From Gammaproteobacteria bacterium (GTDB lineage: Bacteria; Pseudomonadota; Gammaproteobacteria; Enterobacterales; Kangiellaceae): DNA of 64,000 bases. A program made the position numbers and the translations under genes. The stretch spans positions 1-64,000 of the forward strand of contig JABXHY010000052.1 in NCBI GenBank assembly GCA_013373375.1. Direction: 5' to 3'. This document shows positions 55,563 to 63,656 of the stretch, in pieces. How positions within the stretch are numbered: position 1 is the first letter of the stretch; each line of letters begins with the position of its first letter. The notes under the pieces were generated by a model, which worked only from the letters and a program-made list of their open reading frames with translations, was not told the DNA's origin and ran no database searches.

Positions 55563-55820
55563 ATGACGCAACTATTTGACAGTCGAAAAGTAAGGTTTTT
55601 ATGCCGTCGAGGTCTTTTAGAACTTGATGTTATTCTACGACCATTTTTCGAACAACATTACGAAGAATTAACCGATTCCCAAAAGAGTGTTTTTATTCGA
55701 TTTTTAGATGAGCCGGATCCTGATTTGCTTAATTGGTTGATGTTGCATTACCAGCCAGAAGACAAAGACTACAAAGCACTTGTCGAATTAATTCGTAGTA
55801 AAATGGAAATCCCTTCTTGA
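55563..55820 (+). CDS. sdhE: Succinate dehydrogenase assembly factor SdhE
   Basis: An 85-residue FAD assembly factor that helps covalent attachment of FAD to SdhA. The diagnostic RRGLLELDVIL (RGxxELD) motif is at about residues 16-26, followed by LDEPDPDLLNWL. Divergent from ygfZ and 7 bases upstream of the YgfX-like gene. Confidence 0.92.
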   Translation: MTQLFDSRKVRFLCRRGLLELDVILRPFFEQHYEELTDSQKSVFIRFLDEPDPDLLNWLMLHYQPEDKDYKALVELIRSKMEIPS

Positions 55821-55827
55821 AGGCCAA

Positions 55828-56325
55828 ATGAAATCAACGAGAGAAGTATTTCGCGCGAAAGCCGGCAGGTATTTTGGATTTTATATAGTCTTACTGAGTA
55901 TTGCTCCGATAGGTGTTTGTTGGTTGTTTATTCAACACTCAACGTATGCGTTACTTGCTACTTGTTTTATTCTTCTTAGCTTGGTCGTATACGGAAAATA
56001 TTACACTCGAAAGTATCAAGATATCAGCCTGTTAGTTTCGGGAAGTGAATGGCGAGTCGTTGAGACTGGTTCTGTCGAGACTGGTTCTGTCGACTCTGTC
56101 GATTTAAATAATTTTCTAAATGACTACAGCTCTGCTGGACTTAGTAATATTGTGTCTTTGGATCTTCCTGTGATTCGACTTCCGGGGTGCATTCTTATGA
56201 CTTGTCTTTCGGTAACTAAACAAAAGAAAGTCCTGATTTTTTGGAGTGATACTCTTGGTCAGGAAAAATTTCGTGCCCTAAGTCGGTTGTTAAGTCGAGA
56301 AGAGTTTTTAATCAACCGATCTTAG
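55828..56325 (+). CDS. ygfX: YgfX-like inner-membrane protein
   Basis: A 165-residue membrane protein with two close hydrophobic helices (about 17-55) and a C-terminal cytoplasmic part with LPVIRLPGCILMTC and KVLIFWSDTLGQEKFRALSRLL, a pattern of YgfX/CptA-like proteins. In E. coli ygfX is next to sdhE, as here. A 15-base tandem duplication at 56062-56091 gives a repeated ETGSV in this gene. The symbol rests on synteny and weak motif match. Confidence 0.7.
   Translation: MKSTREVFRAKAGRYFGFYIVLLSIAPIGVCWLFIQHSTYALLATCFILLSLVVYGKYYTRKYQDISLLVSGSEWRVVETGSVETGSVDSVDLNNFLNDYSSAGLSNIVSLDLPVIRLPGCILMTCLSVTKQKKVLIFWSDTLGQEKFRALSRLLSREEFLINRS
56062..56091. repeat. 15-base tandem duplication inside ygfX
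   Basis: GAGACTGGTTCTGTC is present twice in tandem with no gap (56062-56076 and 56077-56091), followed by a related third partial copy. It keeps the frame and adds five residues. Confidence 0.9.
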
Positions 56326-56388: not shown

Positions 56389-58005
56389 TTACCCGACAAA
56401 GTCAGCCAACACAATAGAGTCTTCCGCTTCACTGAGTTGCTGTGGGTAATCTAGGTTATAGTGCAATCCTCGGCTCTCTTTTCTTTGTTGCGCGCACTGA
56501 ACCATTAAGTCTGCGACTAGCACCAGGTTTCTCAATTCCAGTAAGTCATTCGTTACTTTAAAGTTTGAGTAATATTCATGAATCTCTTGCTTGAGTAAGT
56601 CGATTCTTCTTTTGGCTCGAGCCAGTCTTTTGTTGCTTCGGACAATACCTACATAGTTCCACATGACCTGTCGAAGTTCGTGCCAATTATGAGTGATGAC
56701 TATTTGTTCGTCGGAGTCGGTAACACGGCTTTCATCCCATGCTGGTATCTCTAAAAAGTCAGGTGCCTCGGCAAGTTTCGATTCAATATTTTCGGCCGCT
56801 GATTTGGCAAAAACTAAACACTCTAATAATGAGTTACTCGCCATCCGGTTTGCACCGTGTAATCCTGTGCTCGCGACTTCACCAATTGCATACAGTCCCG
56901 AAACATCTGTTCTGCTGTTCAGATCAACTTTAACTCCGCCACAAGTGTAGTGGGCCGCTGGAACCACAGGAATAGGTTCGGCTGTTATGTCGATTCCAAG
57001 CTCAAGACATTTTTGATGGATTGTCGGAAAATGATTTCGGACGAATTCCGGTTGCTTGTGGGAAATGTCCAGAAATACACATTCCACCCCGAGCTTTTTA
57101 ATTTGATGATCAATCGCTCTGGCCACAATATCTCGAGGAGCTAGTTCAGCACGTTGGTCATATTCGGGCATAAACCGGGAACCATCAGGTCGCTTTAGTA
57201 CAGCGCCTTCGCCTCTTAAAGCCTCGGAGATTAGAAACGTTCTTGCCTGTGGATGATACAAACAAGTGGGATGAAATTGATTAAACTCCAGATTACTGAC
57301 TCGACATCCGGCACGCCATGCCATCGCAATACCATCACCGGACGCAACGTCGGGATTGCTGGTGTACAAATAGACTTTGCTGGCGCCTCCCGTTGCCAAA
57401 ATGACAAATTTTGCACTAAAGGATTCGACTTGTTGTGTATCCAAATTAAGAGCGTAAGCTCCAATACATCGCTTTGCATGCTCACTATTTGACTCTGTGT
57501 CAGGTGTCGTAATTAAATCAACAGCGTTATATCGTTCGAACAATGTAATGTTACTTCGCTGTTTTACTGCTCCCACTAAAGTTGTCGAGACAGCTCGACC
57601 TGTCGCGTCAGCACTGTGAATAATTCGACGGTGACTGTGTCCTCCTTCGCGAGTGAGATGGTATTCAAAATCTGTTTTGGTACTTTCGTTTTCATTTTTG
57701 CTAAAAGCTACGCCTTGGCTTATGAGCCATTCGATTGCTGCCCTTGAATTTTCAACTGTGTACCTAACAGCTTCAGATTTACATAAACCCGCACCTGCGA
57801 TCAAAGTATCATCCACATGTGAATCAATACTGTCTTTTGAGTCTAAAACAGCAGCAATTCCTCCTTGAGCATAAAATGTAGAACCTTCGGTTAGTTCTGC
57901 TTTTGATAGAACGGCTACTTTTGCAATCTGACTTAAGTGTAGCGCAGCAGATAGCCCTGCAGCTCCCGAGCCGATTATGAGTACGTCAAAACGATGCTGA
58001 GCCAT
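56389..58005 (-). CDS. nadB: L-aspartate oxidase
   Basis: A 538-residue FAD enzyme that converts L-aspartate to iminoaspartate in NAD synthesis. The FAD-binding [11 protein letters not shown] starts at residue 11; [34 protein letters not shown] and [28 protein letters not shown] match fumarate-reductase-family flavoproteins of the NadB type. Divergent from rpoE, a conserved nadB-rpoE neighbourhood in gammaproteobacteria. Confidence 0.95.
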
Positions 58006-58061
58006 CTTGTATCCTTCATTGGCCTGACTCTTGATTTATTGCTTCTTTTTTACCACCTAAC

Positions 58062-58135
58062 AATCAAAAGTCAGAAATTTATCTGAGAAACTTTTGATTA
58101 CGCTTGTGTTTATGCTTCGGTTTTAAATCAAAAGT
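58062..58135. repeat. Three copies of AATCAAAAGT in the nadB/rpoE region
   Basis: AATCAAAAGT at 58062-58071 and 58126-58135, and its inverse ACTTTTGATT at 58090-58099. The first and inverted copies can form a stem. A regulator site or chance in A/T-rich DNA. Confidence 0.45.
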
Positions 58136-58169
58136 CGTCATAATTATAAAAAATTAATGCTAGTAACAC

Positions 58170-58196
58170 GAACTAATCTTTTAATCAGGGGTCATA
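58170..58196 (+). promoter_or_regulatory. Candidate sigma-E promoter of rpoE
   Basis: GAACTA (58170-58175), a 16-base spacer and TCATA (58192-58196) resemble the GAACTT-N16-TCTRA sigma-E consensus and lie 46 bases before rpoE, where autoregulation is expected. The match is partial. Confidence 0.4.
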
Positions 58197-58241
58197 CCAT
58201 GTCGAATAATTACATACACCTGACACTCAGAAGGAGGTTGT

Positions 58242-58811
58242 ATGAGTGCTGGGAATGATATGGCGCTAGTAGAACGAGTGCAGTCAGGCGATAAAAAAGC
58301 GTTTGACTTATTAGTAAAAAAATATCAACACAAGGTATTCAGTTTGATTTCGCGATTGGTGCGAGATCCTGCTGATATTTCTGATGTTGCGCAAGAGGCT
58401 TTCATTAAAGCTTATCGGGCATTACCAAATTTTCGGGGAGACAGTGCGTTTTACACCTGGATGTATCGCATAGCAATAAATACAGCTAAAAATCACTTAG
58501 TAGCTCAAGGGCGCCGTCCACCGGATACTGACGTTGATGCTGTAGATGCAGAGCAGTACAGCAGTGGTGATGCGTTAAGAGACATTGGCAGTCCAGAAAG
58601 AATGATGCTAAAAGATGAGCTAAAGCGGCGGGTATATGAATCAATTGAGCAGTTGCCTGAAGATCTTCGTTCCGCAATTACTTTGCGTGAAATGGAAGGT
58701 ATGAGTTATGAGGAAATTGCTGAAGTACTGGATTGCCCAGTTGGAACAGTACGTTCAAGAATTTTTCGTGCTCGTGAGTCAATTGAGCGGAACATTAGCG
58801 AATTGTTGTAG
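58242..58811 (+). CDS. rpoE: Extracytoplasmic sigma factor RpoE (AlgU)
   Basis: A 189-residue ECF sigma factor for envelope stress. Region 2: DLLVKKYQHKVFSLISRLVRDPADISDVAQEAFIKAYRALPNFRGDSAFYTWMYRIAINTAKN; region 4: LPEDLRSAITLREMEGMSYEEIAEVLDCPVGTVRSRIFRARE. AGGAGG lies 6 bases before the ATG. It is bound by RseA, encoded after a 129-base gap. Divergent from nadB. Confidence 0.96.
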   Translation: MSAGNDMALVERVQSGDKKAFDLLVKKYQHKVFSLISRLVRDPADISDVAQEAFIKAYRALPNFRGDSAFYTWMYRIAINTAKNHLVAQGRRPPDTDVDAVDAEQYSSGDALRDIGSPERMMLKDELKRRVYESIEQLPEDLRSAITLREMEGMSYEEIAEVLDCPVGTVRSRIFRARESIERNISELL

Positions 58812-58940
58812 TCATAGAGACACGAACGGTTACAATTTATTAAGTTGAAAGGCTAAATAATAGGCCGCAGACGAGTAGCTGCCGCAAAATTTGTCGCCGT
58901 ACGAACAAACGATTAAAAGACAACTACGGGGTTGGATTAA

Positions 58941-59606
58941 ATGAAAAGTGATGAACTTAAGCAGACTCTGTCCGAGTGGATGGACGGCGAGCTTGACGAT
59001 ACTCATGATGTTAAAGTCGTAAAAGCGTGCTCCGACTCTGCTGAGTTGAGTAAGTCTTTTGAGTCTTATCATATTATCCGAGCAGCATTAAATAATGAGA
59101 CCAGCTCTCATTGGCATGCCGGCTTTAGCCAAAAGGTTGCAGAAGCACTGGATAATGAACCCACTGTTCTCGCACCTAGACGTCGTAGTCAGCAAGCCGC
59201 TTTTAAAGGTTGGGCAGTGGCGGCTTCAGTTGCACTGGCTGTTGTATTAGGAGCTCAATGGTGGCCGACATCTGGCGTTGCTCCTTCGGGAAATTCTGGG
59301 GAACAGTTTGTCAGTCAGAATAATTCCCAAGTAAAAAATGTCGCAGACAATGACACTATGATTGCTGAGTATCATTTAACCAATGAAGAGCAAGCTCAGT
59401 TGGAGAGAATTGACGCTATTTTTAGTCAATATGCGGATGAGAAACAAACTGCGCAGGGTTCAAAACCTTATGTGAGGTTGGTAAGCGGTGAGCAGGTGAA
59501 AACTTTCAGGATGACACCTCGACAGTTTCGGCAGGTAATGGCAGAGCTTGAAAAGCAGAATCGTGAAGCAGAGCAAAAAGCAAAGCAAGAGCAACTCAAG
59601 CAATAG
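58941..59606 (+). CDS. rseA: Anti-sigma-E factor RseA (MucA)
   Basis: A 221-residue inner-membrane anti-sigma factor. The N-terminal cytoplasmic part (MKSDELKQTLSEWMDGELDDTHD) binds sigma-E; a membrane helix at about residues 90-107 (AVAASVALAVVLGAQWW) is followed by a periplasmic part with a long Gln/Glu/Lys-rich end. Regulated proteolysis releases sigma-E. No rseB follows it: a hairpin with T-run lies directly after and rseC is next. Confidence 0.9.
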   Translation: MKSDELKQTLSEWMDGELDDTHDVKVVKACSDSAELSKSFESYHIIRAALNNETSSHWHAGFSQKVAEALDNEPTVLAPRRRSQQAAFKGWAVAASVALAVVLGAQWWPTSGVAPSGNSGEQFVSQNNSQVKNVADNDTMIAEYHLTNEEQAQLERIDAIFSQYADEKQTAQGSKPYVRLVSGEQVKTFRMTPRQFRQVMAELEKQNREAEQKAKQEQLKQ

Positions 59607-59647
59607 TTGTTAAATGAATACCATTTTTAACTCAGGGATAATGAATA

Positions 59648-59675
59648 AACGGCGATCGAGTGAATCGCCGTTTTT
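59648..59675 (+). terminator. Rho-independent terminator between rseA and rseC
   Basis: The stem AACGGCGAT and ATCGCCGTT with a loop of about 6 bases is followed by TTTT, 40 bases after rseA. It would partly uncouple rseC and degQ from rpoE-rseA. Confidence 0.85.
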
Positions 59676-59836
59676 GTTTTGGACTAACGGAAGGTAGGTG
59701 GGGTAACACACTGGGTGAGAATGTCAGACTCTCAAGTCACACTCAGGTGGTTTATTGTTACTTGTGTTTTTCTCACATGACCCAATTTAAAGCAATACTG
59801 TATTGCAGAATGTATTTGGTTAACTGGAAAGCGGAA

Positions 59837-60343
59837 ATGCAGGCTCAACTTAGTAAAAACCGACATGAGGTTGCGGAAGTGATTTCTCTCGATCACGATT
59901 TTGCTTTGGTTGTGCCGTTGCAACAGGCCGGCTGCGGCAGTTGTCAGGCTCAGACGACATGCGGAACGGGCATTTTGGCTAAAGCGCTTGGAAATAAAAG
60001 GCAGCAAATACGACTTGAGAATTCGATTAACGCAGTTGTGGGAGACAAAGTCGTAGTCGTAGTGCCTGAGCGTGGATTATTAATTGCCTCTTCGTTGATT
60101 TATTTATTTCCTCTAATCACTTTTTTTACGATAGCTCTTATATTCAATGTTTTTGGGTTGTCGGAAAGTTTTCAAGTGATTGGTGGTATCGCAGGTTTAA
60201 TGTCCGGGTTTGCTCTAGCACAAATAATTGCAAAGCTCTTGAATCGTAAATTCTTGTTCAGTATACGCATGGTTGGTTTTGCAAATGAAAACATGACGTT
60301 ACATTTTGAACGACACTTATCTGATAACAAAAGGTCTGTATAG
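59837..60343 (+). CDS. rseC: SoxR-reducing/sigma-E regulatory protein RseC
   Basis: A 168-residue RseC-type membrane protein. The N-terminal part has Cys pair sequence QQAGCGSCQAQTTCGTGIL, and two membrane helices follow at about 75-115. Length and motifs fit RseC (E. coli 159). Start taken at the ATG 59837, MQAQLSKNRHEVAEV; the open frame extends upstream through a terminator to 59660, which is unlikely. Located between rseA and degQ. Confidence 0.85.
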   Translation: MQAQLSKNRHEVAEVISLDHDFALVVPLQQAGCGSCQAQTTCGTGILAKALGNKRQQIRLENSINAVVGDKVVVVVPERGLLIASSLIYLFPLITFFTIALIFNVFGLSESFQVIGGIAGLMSGFALAQIIAKLLNRKFLFSIRMVGFANENMTLHFERHLSDNKRSV

Positions 60344-60391
60344 GTCAATCCATTAAATTTTAAAGCTTGATTTAACACAGGAGAATAAAAA

Positions 60392-61690
60392 GTGCGGGTC
60401 ACTAAACTATTGGGTATTTCTTTTTTATTATTTTTTATTTCCACTGGTTTTGCTCGATTTCCTGACTTTACAGAAACAGTAGAGCGGGTGAAAGATTCTG
60501 TTGTCGTGATAAAAACGGAAGTCGAAAGTCGTGGTCGCACAGCGCCTGGACCTTCTGGCTCAGGTTTTGTTATCGACAAAGATGGTTATGTACTCACCAA
60601 TCGACACGTAATTCATGGAGTTGAATCAATATTTGTTCAGTTAGTAAACAAAAAAGTGTTTAAAGCTGAGTTATTAGGTGAAGATGAAGGCACTGATATC
60701 GCACTTTTAAAAATCGATGCCAAGGGGTTAAAGCCGGTTGCAATTGGCGATGTAAGTAAATTAAAGGTTGGTGCATGGGTTCTGGCATACGGAGCTCCTT
60801 TCGGGCTTGAGCACACAGTAACTGCTGGAATTGTTAGTGCAAAAGGTCGAAGTCTGAGAACTGAGCAGTATGTACCCTTTATTCAAACTGATGCCGCAGT
60901 TAACAGAGGAAATTCTGGTGGTCCGCTATTTAATGAGCGAGGCGAAGTAGTGGGCATCAACTCACAGATTTTCAGTATGACCGGTGGAAATATGGGCTTG
61001 GCATTTGCGATCCCAATGGATCTCGCGATGGAAGTTAGTGACCAGTTGCGTGAATCTGGAGCAGTAAGCCGAGGATTTTTGGGTGTTGGTTATGAAGAAG
61101 TTGACTACGACAAAGCGAAAGCATTTGGTCTAGACGATGTCAAAGGTGCATTGATCAACTCGGTAACGCCAGACTCTCCCGCTGCTGAAGCAGGAATTGA
61201 AGTCGGGGATATCGTGATTAAAGTTGACGGGAAAACAATCGAGTCTGCTGCAGACCTTCCATTTAGCGTCGGACGAGTGAAACCGGGCACTGAAATTGAA
61301 TTGACAGTGCTCCGCAATGGAGGAAAGAAAAAGTCTATCGATGTTACTGTTGGTGAGAGACCTTCATCAGCTGTGGCTTCGGCTCCTGGAAACGGTGGGC
61401 TCGGTGGCACGCGACTAGGATTAGAAGTCGTTGAGTTAACGGAGCAAATGCAAGAACGGGCTAATGTGAGTTACGGCGTATTGGTGCGTAGAGTCGTCCC
61501 TGGGCCTGCTGGTGATGCAGGAATCAGTGAAGGCGATATCCTACAAATGCTTAACCAGCAAAGCATTGCGAATCTAGATGACTACCAAGAAGCTTTAAAT
61601 CAATTACCGGAAAATGGGTCTGTCGCTGTATTGGTTGTTCGTCGAGGCGTACCTAGATTTTTAGTCTTGAAACTTGGCGATCAAGAGTAG
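60392..61690 (+). CDS. degQ: Periplasmic serine protease DegQ/MucD
   Basis: A 432-residue HtrA-type protease with a signal peptide (LLGISFLLFFISTGFA). The trypsin-like triad is His in NRHVIHG, Asp in GTDIALLKI and Ser in RGNSGGPL; two PDZ domains follow (about residues 235-330 and 340-430). It degrades misfolded periplasmic proteins and is typical of the end of rpoE operons (mucD). GTG start with AGGAG about 7 bases before. Confidence 0.93.
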   Translation: MRVTKLLGISFLLFFISTGFARFPDFTETVERVKDSVVVIKTEVESRGRTAPGPSGSGFVIDKDGYVLTNRHVIHGVESIFVQLVNKKVFKAELLGEDEGTDIALLKIDAKGLKPVAIGDVSKLKVGAWVLAYGAPFGLEHTVTAGIVSAKGRSLRTEQYVPFIQTDAAVNRGNSGGPLFNERGEVVGINSQIFSMTGGNMGLAFAIPMDLAMEVSDQLRESGAVSRGFLGVGYEEVDYDKAKAFGLDDVKGALINSVTPDSPAAEAGIEVGDIVIKVDGKTIESAADLPFSVGRVKPGTEIELTVLRNGGKKKSIDVTVGERPSSAVASAPGNGGLGGTRLGLEVVELTEQMQERANVSYGVLVRRVVPGPAGDAGISEGDILQMLNQQSIANLDDYQEALNQLPENGSVAVLVVRRGVPRFLVLKLGDQE

Positions 61691-61853
61691 TTAGTCGAAC
61701 TTAGACTCCTTTCTCGATTTAGTTGGCGGTCTTGATAGGCCGCCACTGCCTTTCTGCAAAGAAATACTGTAAGATCGCGACCTTTGTTTAGACTAACGTA
61801 TTTGAGCCTCCAGTGGGGCGGCTCAACTTTAAATTTCAGGCTAACAAGCATTT

Positions 61854-63656
61854 ATGTCGTACACACAGTTTATTCGTAACTTCTCGATTATCGCGCATAT
61901 TGATCATGGGAAATCGACGCTATCCGATCGTTTAATTCAGTTTTGTGGTGGACTGACTGATCGAGAAATGGCTGAGCAGGTTCTTGACTCCATGGATTTA
62001 GAGAGAGAGCGAGGGATCACCATAAAAGCCCAGAGCGTTACTCTGAACTATGAAGCGAAAGATGGTAATACCTATCAGCTTAATTTTATCGATACTCCAG
62101 GGCACGTTGACTTTTCTTATGAAGTGTCTCGCTCGCTCGCTGCCTGTGAAGGAGCTCTGCTGGTAGTGGATGCGGGGCAAGGAGTTGAAGCCCAGACCGT
62201 TGCCAATTGCTATACCGCAATTGAGCAGGATTTGGAAGTCATCCCAATTTTAAATAAGATCGACTTACCGGCAGCTGATCCTGATAGGGTTGCGCAAGAG
62301 ATTGAGGACATCGTTGGGATTGAAGCTACAGACGCCGTACGTTGTTCTGCGAAAACAGGCATAGGTATTGAAGATGTTCTCGAGACTATTGTCGCAAAAG
62401 TTCCTGCCGCACAAGGCGATGAAAATGCGCCTTTGAAAGCACTGATTGTTGATTCTTGGTTCGATAACTATCTTGGCGTTGTGTCCTTAGTACGTGTAGT
62501 CGAAGGTACTCTCAATGCGGGAGAGAAAATGGTAGTAATGTCGACAGGTAAAGCACATCTGGTCGACCATGTCGGTATTTTTACTCCTAAAAGACACGAC
62601 ACCGGAAGACTGAGAGCGGGCGAAGTTGGTTTTGTTATCGCTGGTATTAAAGACATACAAGGTGCTCCTGTTGGTGACACTCTCACAAATGTTAAAAATC
62701 CCGCAGATGCTCGTTTACCAGGATTTAAGAAAGTTAAACCTCAAGTTTATGCTGGATTATTTCCAGTCTCGTCAGATGATTATGAAAATTTTCGTGATGC
62801 TCTAAGTAAGCTCAGTCTTAATGATGCGTCGTTATTTTTTGAACCGGAAAATTCGACCGCACTAGGTTTTGGTTTTCGTTGTGGCTTCTTGGGCATGCTG
62901 CACATGGAAATCATTCAGGAACGGCTTGAGCGTGAGTACGATCTTGATTTAATCACTACTGCCCCTACGGTTGTGTTTGAGATTGTTAAAAATAATGGTG
63001 AAACCATTTACGTTGATAATCCTTCTAAGTTGCCTGAGCCTGGCGAAATTTCAGAAATGCGAGAACCAATTGTTGAAGCCAATATTCTGGTTCCGCAAGA
63101 TTATCTGGGCAATGTCATTACATTATGTGTCGAAAAACGTGGCGTACAAAAAAATATGCAGTATGCGGGAAATCAAGTAGCGCTGACTTACGAGTTACCT
63201 ATGAATGAAGTGGTGCTCGACTTTTTTGATCGTATTAAATCGGTGAGCCGAGGGTACGCGTCTCTGGATTATAACTTTATTAGATTTCAGCCAGCATCAC
63301 TAGCTCGATTAGATATTATGATAAACGGCGACAAAGTTGATGCGCTTGCTATGATTGTCCACAAAGAGCAAGCTCATTATCGCGGCCGCGAATTGGTTGA
63401 GAAAATGAAAGAGCTTATTCCCAGACAAATGTTTGAAGTGGCAATACAAGCTGGGATTGGTAACCAAATTATTGCTCGTTCAACAGTAAAAGCATTACGT
63501 AAAAATGTTACTGCAAAATGTTACGGTGGCGATGTAAGTCGGAAGAAAAAGTTACTACAAAAGCAAAAAGAAGGTAAAAAGCGAATGAAACAAGTCGGTC
63601 GGGTTGAAATTCCGCAAGATGCGTTTCTAGCAGTGCTTCAAGTTGGAAAAGAATAA
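61854..63656 (+). CDS. lepA: Translation elongation factor 4 (LepA)
   Basis: A 600-residue GTPase that back-translocates or helps ribosome assembly. G motifs AHIDHGKST (residues 15-23), DTPGHVDF, and [10 protein letters not shown]; domains II-V and the C-terminal unique domain LepA_C end with [12 protein letters not shown]. Normal length. Located after degQ, upstream of the lepB-like gene, a conserved order. Confidence 0.97.

What the first reader, a model, noticed from the sequence alone, without database searches (positions are those of the whole stretch)
58242..61690. Sigma-E locus lacking rseB, with a terminator after rseA
The usual order rpoE-rseA-rseB-rseC-degQ lacks rseB here, and a hairpin with T-run separates rseA and rseC. 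RseB normally protects RseA from cleavage, so envelope-stress control may differ or rseB may be elsewhere.
Basis: partly seen in the sequence, partly recalled or inferred. Interest (0 to 1): 0.5.

Follow-up and report, generated by a model that had tools for sequence, protein, structure and literature searches.

The report
Sigma-E stress locus without RseB
A marine bacterium and nearly all its examined relatives run the standard envelope-stress switch (sigma-E held by RseA) without the usual second lock, RseB, and the RseA gene is set apart from the genes behind it by what looks like a transcription stop signal; this is a lineage-wide variant of a known system, not a local accident.

Summary
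The window carries rpoE-rseA-rseC-degQ-lepA with no rseB, and a hairpin plus T-run after rseA. RseB matches nowhere in the 4.53 Mb assembly. It is no local deletion: in the GTDB family (40 genomes; window genus Pleionea) 40 of 40 have RseA and one, G005, has RseB, in exactly the 'before' order rpoE-rseA-rseB-rseC-degQ-lepA. In 24 other families of the order 22 of 24 genomes keep RseB. RseP and a DegS-like candidate are present.

Two features go with the loss: a terminator-like hairpin between rseA and rseC in 27 of 38 rseB-less loci (0.2 expected), and a sigma-E-type promoter in an unusually long rpoE-rseA gap in 31 of 38 (0.3 expected), though not in the window, which has only the rpoE promoter.

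Most likely reading: DegS-type control of RseA without the RseB (LPS) lock, with rseA set apart from the genes behind it. rseB-less loci are known (Stenotrophomonas, Xanthomonas), so this is a variant, not a new kind. A conserved periplasmic block in Pleionea RseA leaves room for an unknown partner.

The parts
58170..58195 (+). sigma-E-type promoter motif of rpoE: GAACTA-N15-GTCAT, starting 72 nt before rpoE
   Evidence: at -68 to -73 in 6 of 6 loci of the window genus plus genus g6; 34 of 37 rseB-less family loci have such a motif within up to 450 nt upstream of rpoE against 0.65 expected in dinucleotide shuffles
58242..58811 (+). rpoE (sigma-E)
   Evidence: TIGR02939 317 bits, over cut-off
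58812..58940 (+). 129-nt rpoE-rseA gap; without the internal sigma-E-type promoter motif that 31 of 38 rseB-less loci carry here
58941..59606 (+). rseA (anti-sigma-E, 221 aa)
   Evidence: PF03872 59.3 bits; matches the RseA chain 1or7_C over residues 7-75, E 3e-6
58959..59198 (+). RseA_N sigma-E-binding domain (residues 7-86)
   Evidence: helices 3-14, 20-32, 34-50, 62-71 in the model
59208..59261 (+). predicted membrane-spanning segment (about residues 90-107)
   Evidence: hydrophobic stretch in the sequence; inference
59364..59591 (+). periplasmic block of RseA (residues 142-217), strongly conserved in Pleionea; includes the region that corresponds to the conserved tail block of RseB-bearing relatives
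   Evidence: helix 193-220 predicted with high and 148-170 with moderate confidence
59647..59680 (+). intrinsic-terminator-like hairpin and T-run after rseA
59837..60343 (+). rseC (start 59810 or 59837; the longer GTG start at 59660 lies inside the hairpin)
   Evidence: PF04246 97.9 bits
60392..61690 (+). degQ/mucD-type Do-family protease
   Evidence: TIGR02037 438.5 bits, over cut-off
61854..63656 (+). lepA, flanking gene that fixes synteny
   Evidence: TIGR01393 1004.5 bits
56389..58005 (-). nadB (name by recall), flanking gene on the other side
   Evidence: PF00890 343 bits; a divergent frame of like start stands before rpoE in G005, and nadB does in E. coli K-12

Best explanation
This is a genuine, lineage-wide rseB-less sigma-E control locus. 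RseA holds sigma-E at the inner membrane; a DegS-type protease, activated by misfolded outer-membrane-protein tails, cuts RseA in the periplasm, RseP cuts it in the membrane, and sigma-E is freed. The RseB lock, which in E. coli must be lifted by LPS before DegS can cut, is gone, so one signal should be enough. rpoE is driven by its own sigma-E-type promoter, and transcripts of rseA stop at the hairpin, so rseC-degQ must come from another promoter or from read-through. In most other rseB-less loci of the family rseA has in addition its own sigma-E-type promoter, giving a dedicated negative-feedback unit that could make up for the lost stabilisation of RseA by making more of it when sigma-E rises. 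Shown here: absence of RseB matches, presence of RpoE, RseA, RseP and a DegS-like candidate, promoter motifs and hairpins. Inferred: activity of promoters and terminator, role of the DegS candidate, the single-signal behaviour, the compensating feedback.
For: RseB C domain (PF17188) absent from the own genome and from 39 of 40 family genomes; N domain (PF03888) over cut-off in 1 of 37 family genomes, not the own; RseA in 40 of 40. RseB kept in 22 of 24 genomes of 24 other families of the order. G005 has the same gene order with rseB between rseA and rseC, 15 nt behind rseA, without a hairpin there. RseP over cut-off in 39 of 40. Own DegS candidate: 388 aa, N-terminal hydrophobic stretch, whole-length match to the DegS profile, no second PDZ by the TIGR02037 match. 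Hairpin plus T in the rseA|rseC gap in 27 of 38 loci against 0.2 expected, 0 of 38 (0.5 expected) in the rpoE|rseA gap. Sigma-E-type motif upstream of rpoE in 34 of 37 (0.65 expected) and in the rpoE|rseA gap in 31 of 38 (0.33 expected); in 13 aligned g5 loci this motif and one element just upstream are the best conserved parts of the gap.
Against: The window itself lacks the internal rseA promoter motif, so the autonomous-unit part does not apply to it in full. 11 of 38 loci have no hairpin by this scan, one of them in the window's genus (G004, L030). Without the energy threshold 3 of 30 loci also show a weak hairpin in the rpoE|rseA gap. All promoter and terminator calls are consensus matches without transcripts. 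The DegS profile also matches DegQ-type proteases, and no match in the family reaches its curated cut-off (0 of 40; own candidate 260.6 of 422.95 bits), so the site-1 protease is a candidate only. A protein of the same fold as RseB but unrecognisable sequence could replace it; the one LolA match in the genome covers the whole LolA profile and was not studied further.
Confidence: 0.72

Rival explanations
1. RseB has been replaced by another periplasmic protein that docks on the conserved C-terminal block of RseA, so the two-signal logic is kept with a different lock.
For: In Pleionea the periplasmic part is more alike than the sigma-E-binding part (62.2 against 51.1% mean identity over 5 sequences; best 35-column window 91.4%). 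Many invariant residues lie in 142-217. A remnant of the tail block of RseB-bearing RseA scores 4 bits or more in 3 of 5 Pleionea against 1 of 250 shuffles.
Against: No candidate partner was found or searched for. A more conserved periplasmic part is also seen in 4 of 7 RseB-bearing control genera (g97, g69, g83, g169; equal in g49), so the Pleionea pattern is not unusual. With a profile that leaves the family out, the remnant is not detected in the other RseB-less family loci (0 of 33); but that test is blunt, since only 3 of 11 RseB-bearing genomes of the order score 4 bits or more with it. Identity in g3 and g4 is low.
Confidence: 0.18
2. The absence is an artefact of an incomplete assembly or of a profile that misses a divergent RseB.
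For: The own assembly is 95.8% complete in 96 contigs. Two g3 genomes have weak partial PF03888 matches (6e-4, 9e-4, below cut-off).
Against: 0 of 34 family genomes at least 90% complete have the RseB C domain; the rseA-rseC gap is 25-313 nt in 38 rseB-less loci, too short for RseB; the profile does find RseB in G005 and in 22 of 24 genomes of other families.
Confidence: 0.04
3. The hairpin is not a terminator but a processing or attenuation element, and rpoE-rseA-rseC-degQ is still one operon.
For: No sigma-70-type promoter was found by the scan between hairpin and rseC in the window, nor a sigma-E-type one; 11 of 38 loci show no hairpin; no transcript data.
Against: The position is kept while the sequence changes, 27 of 38; gaps of 25-313 nt separate rseA and rseC in the family, whereas the next gene overlaps or follows within 32 nt in 6 of 14 rseB-less loci of other families.
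Confidence: 0.15

Closest known systems
E. coli rpoE-rseA-rseB-rseC sigma-E module with DegS/RseP
   Same: RpoE, RseA_N domain, RseC, RseP and a DegS-like candidate; nadB and lepA as flanks
   Different: No RseB; a degQ/mucD-type gene follows rseC; terminator-like hairpin after rseA; 129-nt rpoE-rseA gap against 32 nt in K-12
rpoE-rseA-mucD operon of Stenotrophomonas maltophilia, stated identical in order to Xanthomonas campestris (PMC4229105, passages read)
   Same: Sigma-E, RseA and a MucD/DegQ-type protease with no rseB in the named set; sigma-E-type promoter before rpoE
   Different: Described as three genes in one operon without rseC; here rseC is present and a hairpin separates rseA from it
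G005 locus (same GTDB family, L088)
   Same: Gene order rpoE-rseA-rseC-degQ-lepA, long rpoE-rseA gap (168 nt)
   Different: Has rseB (PF03888 and PF17188 over cut-off; NF006990 199.2 bits, below its cut-off of 368) 15 nt behind rseA and no hairpin there
Kangiella koreensis RseP (structure named in review PMC10202637, passage)
   Same: Best PDB match of this genome's RseP is 7w6y_A, 356.7 bits
   Different: Only the protease is solved; that 7W6Y is the Kangiella protein, and that Kangiella belongs to this GTDB family, is recalled

Membership tests
sigma-E/RseA envelope-stress module | RpoE of the sigma-E equivalog family | tested here: met
   TIGR02939 317 bits, cut-off 236.15
sigma-E/RseA envelope-stress module | RseA with sigma-E-binding N domain, one membrane span, periplasmic tail | tested here: met
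   PF03872 over cut-off; 1or7_C match; span and tail from the sequence and model, by inference. The RseA equivalog NF008116 matches only its N part, 49.3 bits of 263
sigma-E/RseA envelope-stress module | Site-1 protease DegS | tested here: inconclusive
   388-aa DegS-like protein with N-terminal hydrophobic stretch; TIGR02038 260.6 bits, below cut-off 422.95; AlgW and DegS among the best PDB matches, a DegP-like chain first
sigma-E/RseA envelope-stress module | Site-2 protease RseP | tested here: met
   TIGR00054 350.7 bits, cut-off 147.55; NF008046 397.8 bits, below its cut-off 477; HEWGH in the sequence
sigma-E/RseA envelope-stress module | RseB as negative regulator of RseA cleavage | tested here: not met
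   PF03888 and PF17188 without match in the genome
sigma-E/RseA envelope-stress module | Autoregulation from a sigma-E promoter before rpoE | tested here: inconclusive
   Motif present and position-conserved; activity not testable
sigma-E/RseA envelope-stress module | RseA cleavage triggered by OMP peptides | not testable with these tools
   needs biochemistry
rseB-less rpoE-rseA-mucD loci (Xanthomonas/Stenotrophomonas) | rpoE and rseA without rseB, with a mucD/degQ-type gene behind | tested here: met
rseB-less rpoE-rseA-mucD loci (Xanthomonas/Stenotrophomonas) | All genes in one operon | tested here: inconclusive
   Terminator-like hairpin between rseA and rseC; no transcript data

The most novel reading that the evidence does not exclude
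In this family the RseB lock was lost and the circuit rebuilt: rseA became an autonomous sigma-E-induced, terminated feedback unit, and in Pleionea the RseA tail (residues 142-217) was taken over by an unknown periplasmic partner that supplies a new second signal.
Probability: 0.15. Interest if true: 0.65.

Novelty: new variant of a known kind. Interest (0 to 1): 0.4.

Why it matters
E. coli needs two signals (OMP peptides and LPS) to cut RseA. A family that kept RseA and RseP, and probably DegS, but lost RseB, with one relative that still has it in the same gene order, is a natural experiment on what RseB adds and how the circuit adjusts to its loss. The closest solved RseP appears to come from the same family (recalled), so the variant can be studied with tools at hand.

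Tried and rejected
RseB elsewhere in the genome: rejected. LolA as a mistaken RseB: one LolA match, over the whole LolA profile. A TapY2-like domain in the RseA tail (18.5 bits): 1 of 35 family RseA match, so chance. Leader peptides before rpoE or rseA (as rseD in E. coli): short frames occur in many loci and recur among close relatives, but none is shared across the family. An Rfam RNA at the hairpin: one match, MicX, 21 bits against a gathering score of 75, E 0.16, taken as chance. Weak PF03888 matches in G013 and G016 (6e-4, 9e-4, below cut-off, profile 99-164) were not counted as RseB. Internal sigma-70-type promoter: the scan of 58000-62000 gave one site, 58809-58836 in the rpoE-rseA gap, against 6.6 in shuffles, so no evidence either way.

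One loss or more: the RpoE tree and the LepA tree put G005 weakly (82/75 and 84/78) on the side of genus g5, in a fork that also takes in G049, a long-branch RseB-bearing genome of another family; taken at face value that means at least two losses. One clade of RseB-less genomes is not rejected (p-AU 0.32; 13 rows of genera g1, g5, g6; g3 and g4 had no LepA in the stretches fetched and are not in that tree).

Retention of the tail block (recalled as the RseB-docking site) in the RseB-less genera: a first profile that included G005 and L007 gave 18 of 38 at 5 bits or more; without those two, 3 of 38 at 4 bits or more, all Pleionea, so only a weak remnant there is claimed. In one search four gap 'promoters' (window, L018, L030, L034) lay in the end of the rpoE reading frame and one upstream slice (L080) was wrong; one search is the corrected count.

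Papers: PMC4229105, PMC10433810, PMC8103513, PMC10202637, PMC3490749, PMC12153292, PMC7406223 and PMC4598750 were seen as found passages only; PMC1820659, PMC3928677 and PMC1312014 are not held. No paper on rseB loss in Kangiella or Pleionea showed in the listings; most subscription papers are not in that library.
Full report
What is there. The stretch 58242-61690 holds rpoE, rseA, rseC and a Do-family protease gene, with nadB on one side and lepA on the other. Between rseA (ends 59606) and rseC (59837, or 59810) there is no room for RseB. After rseA stands a hairpin at 59647-59673 followed by a T-run.

Whose genome. The window is contig C53 of a 4.53 Mb assembly in 96 contigs, 95.8% complete. 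A scan of named genomes with an alignment of Pleionea-type RseA returned four loci: contigs of Pleionea sediminis, P. mediterranea, Pleionea sp. CnH1-48 and one unnamed gammaproteobacterial MAG, whose lengths equal contigs of G001, G002, G009 and G004. G001, G002 and G004 are in the window's GTDB genus, so that genus is Pleionea; NCBI puts it in Pleioneaceae, Oceanospirillales.

RseB is absent, and not only here. Neither half of RseB (PF03888, PF17188) matches the own genome. In the family, RseA is in 40 of 40 genomes and the RseB C domain in 1 of 40, 0 of 34 among those at least 90% complete. The N domain is over cut-off in 1 of 37; two more (G013, G016) have weak partial matches below it. 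The exception, G005 (73% complete), has rpoE-rseA-rseB-rseC-degQ-lepA, that is, the window's locus plus rseB. Among 24 genomes from 24 other families of the order 22 have RseB; the two without are one of 0.3 Mb and one 89% complete. Most simply, RseB was lost inside this family. Whether once or more often is open: RpoE and LepA trees put G005 weakly on the side of genus g5, together with a long-branch genome of another family, and one clade of RseB-less genomes is not rejected.

How common this is. In a sample of 276 genomes of the class, 190 have RseA and 173 RseB; 23 (the window's among them) have RseA without RseB, in 15 families by my count of the tables. Of the 22 others I looked at 14, those with coordinates listed: in 13 of 14 rseA is followed by rseC or the protease gene with no RseB match between; in the fourteenth (L096) neither was found. 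An rpoE-rseA-mucD operon is in print for Stenotrophomonas, with the same order stated for Xanthomonas (PMC4229105, passages). The lack of rseB as such is therefore not new.

What is special in this family. First, the stop after rseA. With one scanner and one energy threshold, 27 of 38 rseB-less loci have a hairpin plus T-run between rseA and rseC, against 0.2 expected in dinucleotide shuffles; the rpoE-rseA gap of the same loci has 0 of 38 (0.5 expected). Without the threshold an earlier scan of 30 loci showed 3 weak hairpins in the rpoE-rseA gap as well. Two family genomes were left out: G005 (has rseB) and G035 (rseA cut by a contig end). Hairpin sequences differ between and within genera, so the feature, not the sequence, is kept. 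G005 has no hairpin behind rseA. Of the 14 rseB-less loci of other families one (L093) has such a hairpin. Second, promoters. A sigma-E-type motif (GAAC[T/A][T/A], 13-17 nt, GTC) stands before rpoE in 34 of 37 loci (0.65 expected) and in the rpoE-rseA gap in 31 of 38 (0.33 expected). In an alignment of 13 g5 loci this motif and an element just upstream are the best conserved parts of an otherwise variable gap. No such motif lies in the gap of the 14 rseB-less loci of other families or of 12 RseB-bearing loci, G005 included; most of those gaps are short, so this control is weak. The rpoE-rseA gap is 129-431 nt in the 38 family loci. The window is one of the 7 of 38 without the gap motif: it shares the shortest gap (129 nt) and has only the motif before rpoE (58170-58195).

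The rest of the cascade. RseP is over cut-off in 39 of 40; the fortieth, G025, is 82% complete. DegS is less certain. The DegS profile has matches in 40 of 40 genomes, none over its curated cut-off, and it also matches DegQ-type proteases. By my count of that table 36 of 40 genomes have, besides a longer one, a match in an open frame of 382-430 codons, about the size of the own candidate. I looked at three: in the own genome the candidate (388 aa, N-terminal hydrophobic stretch) follows another Do-type protease gene (448 aa), which follows a small gene; in G032 and G026 a like protein (387 and 397 aa) follows a like small gene directly. I recall the small gene as yhcB and the E. coli order as yhcB-degQ-degS. 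RseP is a clear member; its best solved relatives are 7w6y and 7w6x.

RseA's tail. In Pleionea the periplasmic part is more alike than the sigma-E-binding part (62.2 against 51.1%), with a 35-residue window at 91.4%; many invariant positions lie at 142-217. AlphaFold gives helix 193-220 with high confidence, helix 148-170 with moderate confidence and a loose linker; overall confidence is low (mean pLDDT 68.1, pTM 0.34). In the RseB-bearing control genera the best window is a tail block of the type RLNxYLVxH...LPYARIVGY at 84.8-100%, and in 4 of 7 the periplasmic part is the better conserved one too; I recall this block as the docking site of RseB/MucB. Pleionea RseA keeps a weak echo of it (LERI..F...PYVRLVSGE; 3 of 5 at 4 bits or more) followed by a further conserved helix; 0 of 33 other rseB-less family loci reach 4 bits, but neither do 8 of 11 RseB-bearing genomes of the order, so the test is blunt. 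Conservation alone therefore does not prove a new partner.

How it most likely works. RseA holds sigma-E; OMP tails switch on the DegS-type protease; it and then RseP cut RseA. The review passages that I saw state that in E. coli RseB blocks the DegS cut and LPS lifts the block, an AND gate (PMC4598750; PMC8103513). Without RseB the gate should be a single-signal one with a higher basal sigma-E level. A sigma-E-fed rseA unit with its own stop is a plausible compensation: more RseA when sigma-E rises, without raising rseC-degQ. That last step is inference. In the window the compensation, if any, would have to come from a shared rpoE-rseA transcript.

Verdict. Observation confirmed; interpretation partly supported. 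A new variant of a known kind, of moderate interest: a clean evolutionary loss with a linked change of operon structure.

Noticed in passing
13 genus-g5 loci (L013, L014, L016, L017, L019, L020, L022, L023, L025-L029), rpoE-rseA gap: An element ACAAACTTTTTTACA starts about 23 nt upstream of the gap promoter's -35 box and is nearly invariant in the 13 aligned loci (one base differs in L028); it looks like a duplicated -35 box or an activator site.
   Followed up: no
rpoE and rseA leaders of genera g3, g4, g5: Distances from the promoter motif to the start codon are roughly 100-300 nt in many loci, without a leader peptide shared across the family; long leaders of unknown role.
   Followed up: partly
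L093 (G111), behind rseA: A rseB-less locus of another family also has a strong hairpin with T-run between rseA and rseC (-21.4 kcal/mol), a possible independent case.
   Followed up: no
L100 (G267), rseA: RseA with a strong tail block of the RseB-bearing type (21 bits) in a genome without a PF03888 match; RseB may be missed or recently lost.
   Followed up: no
window 55563-56325: SdhE gene (PF03937) followed by a YgfX/CptA-like membrane protein (PF07254, 23.0 bits, below cut-off 27.3).
   Followed up: no
L087 1389-3949 and window 60392-61690: The genome has three strong matches (over 250 bits) to the DegS profile: the protease behind rseC, a 448-aa Do-type one and the DegS candidate.
   Followed up: partly
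G013:C1:629053-629256 and G016:C61:27161-27364: Weak partial PF03888 matches (profile 99-164) in 275-290-codon frames of two g3 genomes, similar to second matches in G044 and G047; perhaps a LolA/RseB-like protein of unknown role.
   Followed up: no
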